Assembly: GCA_016871495.1 (NCBI GenBank)
Contig: VHDF01000047.1
Coordinates: forward strand, 1-33,408
Length of the DNA: 33,408 nt
DNA from: Verrucomicrobiota bacterium
GTDB lineage: Bacteria > Verrucomicrobiota > Verrucomicrobiia > Limisphaerales > VHDF01
Direction of reading: 5' to 3'
Part shown: positions 16,229 to 33,408 of the stretch, in pieces
How the letters are laid out: each line of letters starts with the position of its first letter
Position numbering within the stretch: position 1 is the first letter of the stretch
Translations under genes and position numbers: made by a program
Notes under the pieces: model-generated
The model's database searches: none
Seen by the model: only the letters and a program-made list of their open reading frames with translations
What the model was told of the DNA's origin: nothing

Positions 16229-17893
16229 ATGGCGGAGCCCAAGAAAAAGCAAGGCGCCCCCTCCGGTTCGGCGTCGCCGACCCTCGAGGAATTGGAGAAG
16301 CTCTCCACGTTGCAACTCCTGGATTGGCTGGCAATGCGGGGCGGAGGCCGCGCCTGGTCCCCTTCCGAGTATGCCTTCGTCCGGGACCGCATCGCGGGTT
16401 TGGAGGAAATGAACGATCAAGCCAGGCAGGCGATCGAGAAACTGGACGCGGCGGTCGATCAGCTCAGAGCCCCCGCTCTCCGCGCGGGCACATTCCTCGA
16501 GAGTTTGGGACCGAAAGAAGCCCTGGTCTGCGTCGGAGGATCTGATTACCTCTGCCAAGTGGATCCAGACATCGCCGCCCAGGGACTGCAAATCGGGGAG
16601 CGCGTGCTCTGCAATCAAGCTTTTGCGGTGGTGCGAGCCCTGGGATTTGACCGTTCGGGCCCGATCGTTCGCGTGGAGGACGTGCTCTCGGACGGACGCC
16701 TCCGCATTGGCCAGGACGCGACCGGCCCGCAGACCGTGGTGGTGAGATCCGCGCTGTTATCCAAGGACAAGATCAAGCCGGGCGTGGAGATCCGGCTGGA
16801 TCCGTTTCAACGGGTGGCGTTGGAGGTGGTGGGCGTCTCGAAGCGGATTCATCGCGTGCTGGAGTCTGTTCCGGAAATTCCCTGGAGCGCGATCGGCGGG
16901 CAGGAGGAAGCGGTTTCGGCCATTCGGGACGCGATGGAAATGCCGTTCCTGCACCGCGATTTGTTCAAGGCGTTCGACCACGCGGTTCCGAAGGGCTTTC
17001 TCCTCTATGGACCTCCCGGCTGCGGCAAGACGCTTTTGGGGAAGGCGGCGGCCTACAATCTGCGCCGCCAGCATCAAGCGAGAACGGGGCAGGATCGACC
17101 CGAATTTTTTCTGCATATCAAGGGCCCGGAGATCCTGAACATGTGGGTGGGGGAGTCCGAACGGCAAGTGAGGGATCTCTTCGCTCAGTGCCGGGAGAAA
17201 GCGCGGGAGGGTGCGCTCGCGTTCTTGTTCATCGACGAAGCCGAGTCGCTGCTGGGCACGCGGCACGGCGGCCGTTTTCATCACATGTCCAGCACCATGG
17301 TCCCGATGTTCTGCGCGGAAATGGACGGCCTGGAACCGTTGCAGAATGTGGTCGTGATGCTGGCTTCGAACCGGGCGGATCTCATCGACCCGGCCATTCT
17401 GCGACCGGGCCGGGTCGACCGGAAGATTCGCGTGCGGCGGCCGGACGAGGCCGGCGCTCGGGCTATTTATGCGCTCTACCTCAAGGAGGGCTTGCCGCTG
17501 GCCGAGCCGAGGGAGGTCCTGGCCGCGGCGGCGGCGGAGTGCCAGTTCGCGCGGACGGAAAGCCGTGAATTCCTTGAGGTGACTTATCGCAGCGGACGGC
17601 GTGACGTGTTGTATCAGGGAGACCTGGCCAGCGGCGCCATCATTGCGGCCATCGTCGAGCGAGCCAAAGGCGCGGCCATCAAGCGCTCCGTGGAACTCGG
17701 TGTCGTGTCTCCTTTGACCCGGGAAGATCTGCTGCAAAGCCTCGACCGCGAGTATGGTGAGAACGATTTGTTCCCCGCGAACGATCTGACGGAGGACTGG
17801 CTGAAATTGACTGATTTCGACCCTCACAACGTGGTGAGGCTGGGTCCGGTGCGCCCACGCGGAGCAACCGAGCTTACGGTCAGCGTGGTGTGA
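16229..17893 (+). CDS. mpa: Proteasomal AAA+ ATPase (ARC/Mpa family)
   Basis: 554 residues (M. tuberculosis Mpa is 609). The N-terminal part includes a predicted coiled coil at about residues 50-80 (RDRIAGLEEMNDQARQAIEK), which in Mpa binds the Pup modifier. Residues about 85-200 fit the OB-fold interdomain. The AAA+ module has Walker A GPPGCGKT (261-268), a pore loop in NMWVGESE, Walker B FLFIDEAES with D336-E337, and RPGRVDR. It would form a hexameric ring that unfolds tagged proteins into the 20S core. The C-terminus ends ELTVSVV, without the QYL/HbYX-type docking motif of Mpa. It leads the operon; dop follows after 10 bases. The symbol arc is equally used. Confidence 0.95.
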   Translation: MAEPKKKQGAPSGSASPTLEELEKLSTLQLLDWLAMRGGGRAWSPSEYAFVRDRIAGLEEMNDQARQAIEKLDAAVDQLRAPALRAGTFLESLGPKEALVCVGGSDYLCQVDPDIAAQGLQIGERVLCNQAFAVVRALGFDRSGPIVRVEDVLSDGRLRIGQDATGPQTVVVRSALLSKDKIKPGVEIRLDPFQRVALEVVGVSKRIHRVLESVPEIPWSAIGGQEEAVSAIRDAMEMPFLHRDLFKAFDHAVPKGFLLYGPPGCGKTLLGKAAAYNLRRQHQARTGQDRPEFFLHIKGPEILNMWVGESERQVRDLFAQCREKAREGALAFLFIDEAESLLGTRHGGRFHHMSSTMVPMFCAEMDGLEPLQNVVVMLASNRADLIDPAILRPGRVDRKIRVRRPDEAGARAIYALYLKEGLPLAEPREVLAAAAAECQFARTESREFLEVTYRSGRRDVLYQGDLASGAIIAAIVERAKGAAIKRSVELGVVSPLTREDLLQSLDREYGENDLFPANDLTEDWLKLTDFDPHNVVRLGPVRPRGATELTVSVV

Positions 17894-17903: not shown

Positions 17904-19430
17904 ATGGAGTCGCCCATCCCGATCCTGATCGGAGTGGAAACGGAGTACGGGATCCATGTCGAGCGCTCCGAAGGAGAGGGCGAGCCCGATGTGGTGGCGG
18001 ATTCGATCGCGCTGGTGCGCTGCGCGTCCGAACCCGGGGTCTGGATGGTGTGGGATTATTCGGCGGAGGATCCGCACCGGGATGCGCGAGGGTTTCACGT
18101 CGATCAACTGCGGCAGGACACCGACGAAGCCGCTTATGTCGATCAAGACGCGCGACGCGAGCTTTCCTACGTGGAGGTGAAAAGCGATCTCGCGCTGAGC
18201 AACGGCGGGCGTTTCTACAACGATCACGCGCATCCCGAATTCTGCACCCCGGAATGCGCAACTCCTGGAGAATTGGCCCAACAGGACCGGGCCGGCGAAT
18301 GGCTGGTCCGAAATTGTGCGCGCACTCTCGGCGGCAAGCTCGGAAGGCCGGTGCGGATTTACAAGAACAACACGGACTTTCAGGGACACAGTTACGGCTG
18401 CCACGAGAACTATTTGCTGCCCCGCGCCCTGCCCTGGGAAAAACTGGCGCGAGCGATGCAGGCTTTCCTGGTCACGCGGCAGATTTACGCCGGGGCCGGA
18501 AAATTCGGCTGGGAGGCGGAGGATCGCTTTCTCGAGTCCCATTTTCAGATCAGCCAAAGAGCGGATTTTTTCTCCGAGCTCCAGAGTGTGGACACCATGC
18601 AGCGGCGGCCCTTGATCAACACCCGGGACGAGCCGCACGCGAACCCGAGTCTTTACCGCCGGTTCCATGTCATCCTGGGCGATGCCAACATGTCTCCCTT
18701 CGCGACGCGGCTGAAGGTCGGCGCCACCGCCCTGGTTCTGGAAGCGGCGGCGCGCGCGCCGGATCTTGATTGGCCGGTCCTCGAACACCCGCTGGAAGCA
18801 GTGCGGTCCATTTCCCGGGATCCGGATTTCGCCTGGAAGGTGCGTTGCGAGCGGAACCGCTTCGCTTCAGCCCTGGAGGTGCAGTCCTGGTATCTGGAGA
18901 TGGCGGGCCGCTGGTGCAACACCGCGGAATCGTGGAAGACGGCGCTGATGTCGGATTGGGCCCAGGTGATGAAGGACCTGGCCGAGGATCCTTTTCGTTG
19001 CCGCCACCGGCTGGATTGGCCGGCGAAATTGCATTGGATCCGACGGTTTCAGAGGGACGAAGGCTTGTCTGATTCCGACCCCTGGCTGCGCAGTCTCGAT
19101 TTGCAATATCACCTGCTGGATCCGGCGGAAGGGTTGTTTGCCGCGCTGGAGAGCTCGGGCGAGATGGAAGCCGGGGAGCCGGACGAAGCTTCTGCCCGAG
19201 CGCTCCGATCTCCGCCCGCCATCACCCGCGCCGCCGTGCGTGGAAAGTTGATCGAGAAATTCCCCGCGCGGGTTCTGGCCGCGCAGTGGGACCACGTGCT
19301 GCTGGAAGGCAAGGCAGGCGTGGTCCGGGTGGATCTGACGGATTTGTTCGCCCCGGACGACATTTCGCGCTATCTTCAGCGCATTGAAGCGGCCCGCGCA
19401 GTGGACGACTTGCGGGGGTTGGACGATTGA
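17904..19430 (+). CDS. dop: Dop-type UBact/Pup depupylase (deamidase homologue)
   Basis: 508 residues of the Pup-ligase/Dop (glutamine-synthetase-like) fold. It opens ILIGVETEYGIHVE with the metal-binding E12/E14, and the nucleophile is D107 in FYNDHAHPEFCTPEC. The segment between about 50 and 90 (SAEDPHRDARGFHVDQLRQD) is the extra Dop loop that PafA enzymes lack. RIYKNNTDFQGHSYGCHENY, FQISQRADFF, INTRDEPHANP and GDANMSPFAT are conserved. Dop cleaves the isopeptide bond between modifier and substrate. In actinobacteria it also deamidates a terminal Gln of Pup, which is not needed here because the adjacent modifier already ends in Glu. The stop is 29 bases before the UBact ATG. Confidence 0.94.
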   Translation: MESPIPILIGVETEYGIHVERSEGEGEPDVVADSIALVRCASEPGVWMVWDYSAEDPHRDARGFHVDQLRQDTDEAAYVDQDARRELSYVEVKSDLALSNGGRFYNDHAHPEFCTPECATPGELAQQDRAGEWLVRNCARTLGGKLGRPVRIYKNNTDFQGHSYGCHENYLLPRALPWEKLARAMQAFLVTRQIYAGAGKFGWEAEDRFLESHFQISQRADFFSELQSVDTMQRRPLINTRDEPHANPSLYRRFHVILGDANMSPFATRLKVGATALVLEAAARAPDLDWPVLEHPLEAVRSISRDPDFAWKVRCERNRFASALEVQSWYLEMAGRWCNTAESWKTALMSDWAQVMKDLAEDPFRCRHRLDWPAKLHWIRRFQRDEGLSDSDPWLRSLDLQYHLLDPAEGLFAALESSGEMEAGEPDEASARALRSPPAITRAAVRGKLIEKFPARVLAAQWDHVLLEGKAGVVRVDLTDLFAPDDISRYLQRIEAARAVDDLRGLDD

Positions 19431-32069: not shown

Positions 32070-33071
32070 CTACATCCGCGCCGCGTTTCCACGCCCCCGC
32101 TGGCGGCGCGCCTTGAGAAAGTCGAGCAACGCCCATTCCAAGGGCGTGTCCGTGCGCAAGACCCGGACGGCCGTCCCGTGCCGGGCGCAAATGGCCTCCA
32201 ACGCCTGCCGATGAGCCGCGCGTTTGGCGCGATAGCGTTCGCGGAAGGTGGGCGCGTCGAGGTCGATTTCGCGGCCCGTTTCCAAATCCTTCAACCGCAC
32301 CGTGTCGCCAAAATCCAAATCCTCCTCCATCGGGTCCGCGATCTGAAAAACGACGACCTCATGCCCGCCGGCGCGCAAGGTTCCCAGCGGCAACTCGAAT
32401 CCATCCAGGGGCGACATGAAATCGGAGATGAACACCGCCAGACTGCGCCGCTTCAGGATTTCCAGAAGCCGCTTCAAAGGAGTCGCCAAGTCCGTGCCTA
32501 CCCCTCCGCACTCCTTCTCCAGCGCCAGCATCAGCCTCCGCAAATGCCCGGGACGATTCCGCGCCGGCACCGCCTCCCGAATGCGCTCGTCGAAGGACAA
32601 CAAGCCCACCGCGTCGCCCTGCAAATGGAGAAACCGCGCCAGCGTCGCGGCCAGGGTCCGCGCGTAATCCGCTTTCAAAACCCCGCGTGACGCGTAATCC
32701 ATCGACTTGCTCAGGTCCAGCAGGAGAAAACAGCGCAGGTTGGTCTCATCCTCGAACTTCCGGACAAAATGCCGGTCCGTCCGCCCGTACAATCTCCAGT
32801 CGAGAAAGCGCGGATCATCACCCGGGGCGTACTGGCGGTACTCGGAGAACTCGACGGAGAAACCGTGGTAAGGGCTGCGATGAAGGCCGCTCCAAAACCC
32901 CTCGACCACGACGCGAGCGCGCCATTCCAGATTCTGGATGGCCATCAAGGCTCGGGGATCAATGAACGAGGACTTCCGCTCCCCTGACGGCGCGGCGCTG
33001 GGCTCGTTTTGGCGGATCGCTTGCACGGTGGATGGCTGGATGACCTTACGGCTCTCCCTCCCTCGGAGCAA
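32070..33071 (-). CDS. DUF58 family VWA-like protein
   Basis: 333 residues if read from a TTG at 33071; a GTG at 33026 (318 residues) is an equal candidate, and the conserved part begins near FIDPRALMAIQNLEWRAR. The hallmarks are VVVEGFWSGLHRSPYHGFSVEF, YRQYAPGDDPRFLDWRLYGR, FEDETNLRCFLLLDLSKSMDY (a DxSxS MIDAS site) and AVFISDFMSPLDGF. DUF58 proteins are cytosolic partners of MoxR AAA+ ATPases; the moxR gene usually lies directly upstream, which here is past a group II intron end and outside the window. It is the first visible gene of the leftward operon. No good Shine-Dalgarno was found for either start. Confidence 0.9.
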   Translation of the reverse strand: MLRGRESRKVIQPSTVQAIRQNEPSAAPSGERKSSFIDPRALMAIQNLEWRARVVVEGFWSGLHRSPYHGFSVEFSEYRQYAPGDDPRFLDWRLYGRTDRHFVRKFEDETNLRCFLLLDLSKSMDYASRGVLKADYARTLAATLARFLHLQGDAVGLLSFDERIREAVPARNRPGHLRRLMLALEKECGGVGTDLATPLKRLLEILKRRSLAVFISDFMSPLDGFELPLGTLRAGGHEVVVFQIADPMEEDLDFGDTVRLKDLETGREIDLDAPTFRERYRAKRAAHRQALEAICARHGTAVRVLRTDTPLEWALLDFLKARRQRGRGNAARM

Positions 33072-33219
33072 TCACGACCTGCGGACATTCTGAGGCACAG
33101 CCCGCCGCAAGAATCTTCCAAGGCTGCGGCAGGAGCGGACCAGACTCCATCTTGAACCTGTCATTCGCAACGAGGCCGGTGCATCCAGAGGTCGTCGGTG
33201 ACCGGGTTGTCTTGGTAAC

Positions 33220-33237
33220 GCAGACAGCCCTGTCTGC
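33220..33237. repeat. 18-base palindrome beside the intron end
   Basis: GCAGACAGCCCTGTCTGC, with 8-base arms around a 2-base centre. It lies in the 170-base gap between the DUF58 start and the group II intron domains, 10 bases from the end of domain VI. There is no T-tract, so it is not a clear terminator. Group II introns of some classes insert next to hairpins, which may explain the position. Confidence 0.6.
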
Positions 33238-33281
33238 TGATCGGGTCGGGTGCCGGGGATTGCGCCCCGGCACCCTCCCAC

Positions 33282-33315
33282 ACCACCGGACGTGCGGTTT
33301 TCCGCATCCGGCGGT
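33282..33315 (-). ncRNA. Group II intron domain V
   Basis: 34 bases on the minus strand: a lower stem ACCGCCGGA/TCCGGTGGT of nine pairs including one G-U wobble at the middle base of a CGC-type catalytic triad, a five-pair upper stem TGCGG/CCGCA closed by an AAAA loop, and a two-base bulge (CG) on the 3' strand. Length, bulge and wobble all agree with domain V, the catalytic core of these ribozymes. Confidence 0.82.
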
Positions 33316-33331
33316 TGAACGCAGCGGCCCT

Positions 33332-33408
33332 TCACACGGTGGCCGCAAGGTCGGATGGCATCCAAAACCCGTGACGTCGCAACGCCGCGTTGCTTAACGC
33401 CGTCTGCA
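33332..33408 (-). CDS. C-terminal tail of a group II intron-encoded protein (partial)
   Basis: An open frame entering from the right edge ends TGA at 33334-33332 and encodes ...QTALSNAALRRHGFWMPSDL and a few more residues. The pattern ALSNAxLRxxG resembles the extreme C-terminus of group II intron reverse transcriptase/maturases, and the stop is 16 bases before domain V, as expected. Only about 24 residues are visible, so this rests mainly on the adjacent RNA domains. Confidence 0.45.
   Translation of the reverse strand, partial: QTALSNAALRRHGFWMPSDLAATV

What the first reader, a model, noticed from the sequence alone, without database searches (positions are those of the whole stretch)
33248..33408. 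Group II intron end immediately upstream of the DUF58 operon
A textbook 34-base domain V with a CGC triad and G-U wobble, plus a domain VI hairpin, sits 175 bases before the DUF58 start. The intron may separate this operon from its usual moxR gene, or supply its promoter. The domain VI stem seems to lack a bulged A, which would imply hydrolytic splicing.
Basis: partly seen in the sequence, partly recalled or inferred. Interest (0 to 1): 0.6.

Follow-up and report, generated by a model that had tools for sequence, protein, structure and literature searches.

The report
Group IIC intron in palindromic repeats
The end of this stretch of a verrucomicrobial genome holds the tail of a self-splicing, self-copying RNA element (a group IIC intron) that inserts itself just behind the DNA hairpin of short repeats scattered through the genome by the hundred, a kind of landing site the reviews I could read do not list for these introns.

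Summary
Observation confirmed. 33240-33408 (minus strand) is the 3' end of a group II intron (RF00029 above the gathering score, strong DV/DVI covariation), plus the last 24 codons of its reverse transcriptase. DV is exactly 34 nt with a CGC triad: class IIC. The window ends there because the intron is multicopy: five contigs break at the same intron base. Two details fail. The DVI branch A is present at -7 in all 27 distinct copies. The moxR orthologue lies elsewhere, with no sign that this intron split it from DUF58.

The unforeseen part is the target. The 3' exon (33177-33239) is the right end of a ~219-bp palindromic repeat with terminal inverted repeats; at least 133 vacant copies of its insertion site remain. 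The intron sits right after the repeat's hairpin, between hairpin+IBS1 and IBS3. Two contig ends rejoin to the vacant site of a second subfamily. Relatives in two other families show the same precise insertion into their own high-copy hairpins (285 and 120 copies). Twelve of 13 5' junctions follow a strong stem, without a T-tract in those examined. I read it as a standard IIC retroelement homing to REP/MITE-like repeats instead of terminators or attC sites: a new variant of a known kind.

The parts
33332..33406 (-). Last 24 codons and stop of the intron-encoded reverse transcriptase (QTALSNAALRRHGFWMPSDLAATV*)
   Evidence: Aligns with the C-terminus of the intact 427-aa open frame of a verrucomicrobial relative (L148 ...NSLLRRWKFLMPSDLGASV)
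33282..33315 (-). Intron domain V, 34 nt, CGC catalytic triad
   Evidence: RF00029 hit; fold; covariation; coordinates
33243..33280 (-). Intron domain VI; branch-point A at 33246
   Evidence: Changes on both sides in 8 of 15 pairs of the helix; A at -7 in 27/27 distinct 3' ends
33240..33408 (-). 3' part of a group IIC intron (cut by the contig end at an intron base shared by five contigs)
   Evidence: Same contig-terminal sequence in C47, C160, C28, C77, C62
33177..33239 (-). 3' exon = right end of a ~219-bp dispersed palindromic repeat; begins exactly at the 3' splice site
   Evidence: Homologous repeat in tens of other places in the genome starting at the same base
33220..33237 (-). Second hairpin of the repeat, GCAGACAGGGCTGTCTGC
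   Evidence: Sequence and coordinates
32070..33071 (-). DUF58/VWA gene downstream, same strand as the intron
   Evidence: Pfam PF01882 1.6e-51

Best explanation
This is the 3' end of a recently active, multicopy group IIC intron retroelement (ribozyme plus an RT/maturase with no endonuclease domain). Shown from sequence: it is inserted at one exact position of a dispersed ~219-bp palindromic (REPIN/MITE-like) element, directly after a hairpin plus about 4 nt (IBS1), with C as the first 3'-exon base (IBS3); vacant copies of the same site exist by the hundred; related introns in other families of the order insert equally precisely into their own high-copy hairpin repeats. Inferred: the intron RNP recognises the repeat's hairpin extruded in single-stranded DNA (as at a replication fork) in place of the terminator or attC hairpin used by described IIC introns, pairs EBS1 with the short IBS1, reverse-splices in, and is copied by its RT using nascent DNA as primer. 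The repeats thus act as a large set of landing sites. The intron is in the DUF58 leader by accident of where a repeat lay and would splice out of, or lie upstream of, that transcript.
For: Intron identity. Class IIC: CGC triad; 5' end GTGTGCCCGG; RT of a relative closest to GsI-IIC RT (E 5.7e-141), with RVT_1 and GIIM and no HNH. Multicopy and recent: five contigs with about 170 intron bases at 99-100% identity, all ending at one base. Target: 3' exons of all five copies are parts of the same repeat family; the 5' exon on C81 is the repeat's left part ending in hairpin CGCAGGCTGGGCAGCCTGCG + CCC; 133 vacant hairpin1-hairpin2 sites, backwards control 0. The C8 5' exon (..GCGGCGTGAACGCCGCGCCC) plus the C77 3' exon (CGGCGCTGCCGCGC..ATCACCGACAACC) gives the vacant subfamily-2 site. 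G036: complete 685-nt intron precisely inside a repeat whose vacant copy L186 reads ..GCCGCGCTC|CTTGCGCCCTCACTGAATGGTTACGG; hairpin 285 copies, control 0. G138: intron at GGCGGCTA|CGGA of a ~103-bp tandem hairpin unit, 120 hairpins, control 0. 12 of 13 5' junctions have a stem score of at least 6 ending 1-4 nt upstream, against 3.8% of random sites. EBS1 candidate at intron nt ~180 pairs 4/4 with differing IBS1s in 6 of 8 introns, 3/4 in the other two.
Against: No single contig in the window's own genome spans a whole copy, so the 5' and 3' flanks of the window's copy are not linked; the middle of the RT is missing from the assembly. The window family's EBS1 (UGGC) pairs only 3 of 4 with the IBS1 seen at C81 and C8 (GCCC). 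One of 13 junctions (G110) has only a 4-bp stem. Copy number of the target hairpin was measured in only a few lineages. Recognition of the hairpin as DNA, splicing and mobility are untested.
Confidence: 0.87

Rival explanations
1. Ordinary IIC intron targeting intrinsic terminators; the repeats are just terminators of neighbouring genes.
For: IIC introns are known to insert after terminator hairpins (PMC4424553); the repeats are hairpins, and many may lie near gene ends.
Against: No T-tract follows the hairpins: 0 T in the 8 nt after the hairpin at the vacant sites of both subfamilies, and the vacant sites of the two other lineages read GCTCCT.. and GCTACGG... The targets are two-armed repeats with terminal inverted repeats or tandem arrays, not gene-specific terminators.
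Confidence: 0.08
2. The intron was carried passively: an intron-bearing repeat transposed or recombined as a unit, so the association reflects spread of the repeat and not intron targeting.
For: Intron and repeat are both multicopy in this genome; C75 and C81 carry the same 111 nt of 5' exon.
Against: Insertions are in two different repeat subfamilies in this genome, in divergent or deleted copies of the right end (C28, C62, C77), and in unrelated repeats of other families. EBS1/IBS1 co-vary.
Confidence: 0.05
3. Dead fossil intron left beside DUF58.
For: Decayed and truncated relatives exist: C24 stub, C139 5'-truncated copy.
Against: Five copies nearly identical over about 170 nt; intact DV/DVI; RT N-terminal frame open on C81.
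Confidence: 0.07

Closest known systems
Bacterial class C / group IIC introns at transcription terminators (e.g. those of Bacillus halodurans and Oceanobacillus iheyensis; GsI-IIC RT)
   Same: CGC triad, 34-nt DV, GUGUG 5' end, RT/maturase without endonuclease, hairpin upstream of a short IBS1, IBS3
   Different: Hairpin belongs to a dispersed palindromic repeat, has no T-tract, and is present in more than 100 copies per genome
Group IIC-attC introns
   Same: Use a non-terminator DNA hairpin as target
   Different: Target is not an integron attC; IBS1/IBS3 here GCCC, GCTC or GCTA / C, not TTGT/T
REP sequences as mobile-element targets (Tobes and Pareja 2006, PMC1525189: insertion sequences; 2 of 9 group II intron copies in P. 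putida KT2440 at REPs)
   Same: Precedent for palindromic repeats hosting mobile elements, including some group II introns
   Different: There a minority of the intron copies and mainly IS; here all five 3' exons seen in this genome, with exact-site insertion in three lineages

Membership tests
Group II intron | DV (34 nt) and DVI secondary structure at the 3' end | tested here: met
   RF00029 45.3 bits; covariation 0/500 shuffles as high
Group II intron | 5' end GUGYG and intron-encoded RT/maturase | tested here: met
   GTGTGCCCGG on C81 and C8; RT N-terminus on C81 and C139, C-terminus in the window; interior missing from the assembly
Group II intron | Bulged branch A in DVI | tested here: met
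   A at -7 in 27/27
Group IIC intron | CGC triad in DV | tested here: met
   Sequence of DV
Group IIC intron | Class C RT, no endonuclease domain | tested here: met
   Relative L148: best PDB match GsI-IIC RT; Pfam RVT_1 and GIIM only. Inferred for the window's own copy, whose RT is incomplete
Group IIC intron | Hairpin just upstream of a 3-4 nt IBS1 | tested here: met
   12/13 junctions; IBS1/EBS1 candidate
Group IIC intron, terminator-targeting | Target hairpin is an intrinsic terminator with a T-tract | tested here: not met
   No T-tract at vacant sites
Group IIC-attC intron | Insertion at attC, IBS1/IBS3 TTGT/T | tested here: not met
   IBS1/IBS3 are GCCC, GCTC or GCTA / C; target is a dispersed or tandem repeat
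Group II intron | Self-splicing and retrohoming activity | not testable with these tools
   Needs experiment

The most novel reading that the evidence does not exclude
A whole lineage of verrucomicrobial IIC introns has specialised on genome-wide palindromic repeats as homing sites, with EBS1 changing to follow whichever hairpin repeat is abundant in each host: a third IIC target class besides terminators and attC.
Probability: 0.6. Interest if true: 0.6.

Novelty: new variant of a known kind. Interest (0 to 1): 0.48.

Why it matters
A 2015 review counts three target specificities for bacterial group II introns: homing sites, terminators, attC (PMC4424553). Here hairpins of high-copy palindromic repeats serve as the site, with hundreds of vacant copies per genome. 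That gives a natural test of whether IIC introns recognise the hairpin itself or the terminator function, shows how a retroelement can multiply in repeat-borne landing sites, and adds to the ways REP/MITE-like repeats shape genomes and break assemblies.

Tried and rejected
Terminator target: no T-tract. EBS1 by unsupervised column scan was ambiguous; it was resolved only by looking for complements of each exon at one homologous position, so it remains a candidate. A first covariation count used a misregistered structure string and was discarded; the corrected one is. Two key IIC papers were not in the library. Literature searches found no report of IIC introns in dispersed repeats other than the P. 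putida table entry, whose intron class is not stated there.

Full report
What is there. Rfam RF00029 matches the minus strand at 33316-33240 over its whole length and above the gathering score. Domain V is exactly 34 nt (33282-33315) with a CGC triad; domain VI is 33243-33280; the intron ends at 33240. On twelve divergent homologues the DV/DVI pairs hold in 97.4% of cells, with 24 cells changed on both sides against 5.9 in shuffles, none of 500 as high, and all slid registers far lower. Upstream, 33332-33406 encodes the last 24 residues of the intron's reverse transcriptase, matching the C-terminus of an intact 427-aa open frame in a named verrucomicrobial genome.

Why the window stops here. 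The window is contig C47 of a 201-contig assembly. Contigs C47, C160, C28, C77 and C62 all begin or end at the same intron base, so a multicopy element was collapsed by the assembler. 5' ends are on C81 and C8 (GTGTGCCCGGCAGG...) and a 5'-truncated copy is on C139. The RT interior was not found in the assembly. The intron is class IIC: CGC triad, the 5' end sequence, and a relative's RT whose best solved match is the GsI-IIC RT, with RVT_1 and GIIM domains and no endonuclease. The same order holds named Verrucomicrobia genomes: G084 contig C8 and record CAINDV010000008.1 have the same length, 4223 bases, and both carry the same intron.

The branch point. Branching therefore remains possible; which route is used is untested.

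The target. The 3' exon starts a 63-base stretch that recurs in tens of other places in the genome from exactly the same base. Aligning 28 copies shows a repeat of about 219 bp with imperfect terminal inverted repeats (CCGTGCATCCCGAAGTTGTC.../...GACAACCTCTGGATGCACCG), two inverted copies of one hairpin, and a further hairpin; as single-stranded DNA it folds with z -8.5. The site between hairpin CGCAGGCTGGGCAGCCTGCG + 3 nt and CAGCAGACAGGGCTGTCTGC occurs vacant 133 times with up to 3 mismatches, with no match for the reversed control. All five 3' exons are parts of this repeat family, three of them altered copies. The C81 5' exon is the left part of the repeat ending in that hairpin.

Exactness. 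The 5' exon of C8 (hairpin GCGGCGTGAACGCCGC + GCCC) and the 3' exon of C77 (CGGCGCTGCCGCGC...) together give a second subfamily of the repeat, which occurs vacant as GCGCCCCGGCGCTGCCGCGCGCATCACCGACAACC (the two flanks come from different contigs and need not be the same copy). In G036, of another family, a complete 685-nt ORF-less intron interrupts a two-armed repeat at GCGCTC|CTTGCGCCCTCACTGAATGG, which is uninterrupted in L186; the hairpin occurs 285 times. In G138, of a third family, two introns follow GGCGGCTA, vacant as GGCTA|CGGA in ~103-bp tandem units; the hairpin occurs 120 times. Over 13 5' junctions, 12 have a stem score of at least 6 ending 1-4 nt before the intron, against 3.8% of random positions. 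A candidate EBS1 near intron nt 180 is complementary to each intron's own IBS1: 4 of 4 in six introns with several different IBS1s (one with a G-U pair), 3 of 4 in the window's family and G036.

Mechanism. Shown: precise, duplication-free insertion after a hairpin + IBS1 in high-copy repeats, in three lineages. Inferred from established IIC biology (reviewed in PMC4424553 and PMC7923331): reverse splicing into single-stranded DNA with the hairpin replacing IBS2, then reverse transcription from nascent DNA. The hairpins are not terminators by sequence: no T-tract.

DUF58. moxR adjoins DUF58 in 7 of the 12 closest relatives examined. Here the orthologue is on C10 with an SRPBCC-like gene after it; the intron is not shown to have caused this. 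The SRPBCC assignment is my reading of the sequence. No sigma-70-like promoter was found in the region.

Novelty. The literature held lists homing sites, terminators and attC as targets and, for REPs, a table entry of 2 of 9 P. putida group II introns. The present case is a new variant of a known kind. Absence of a prior report is limited to the open-licence library searched.

Noticed in passing
G000 C85:1-1360 (L034) and C161:4833-4933 (L039): A second, different group II intron family in the same genome; the C85 RT has an internal TAG and its match is split over two frames.
   Followed up: partly
G000 C139:1-127 (L033) and C24:32235-32359 (L040): A 5'-truncated copy (flank joins mid-RT) and a decayed ~125-nt intron stub next to another repeat.
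   Followed up: partly
G036:C17, 685-nt intron in L115; also G110:C823 (L119), G231:C89 (L126), G233:C560 (L118): ORF-less derivatives of the same intron family, presumably mobilised in trans.
   Followed up: partly
G138, e.g. C9:6466-6690 (L204), C287, C98: Tandem arrays of ~103-bp units with a perfect hairpin, 120 hairpin copies in the genome; nature unknown.
   Followed up: partly
window 16229-17893 + and 17904-19430 +: Pup-proteasome-type ATPase (ARC/Mpa) and Dop/PafA homologues side by side.
   Followed up: no
G000 C75 (L044), C24 (L040), C8 (L043): Another palindromic repeat sharing GTGCATCCCGATGTTG-like terminal repeats but a different core; the repeats look modular.
   Followed up: no
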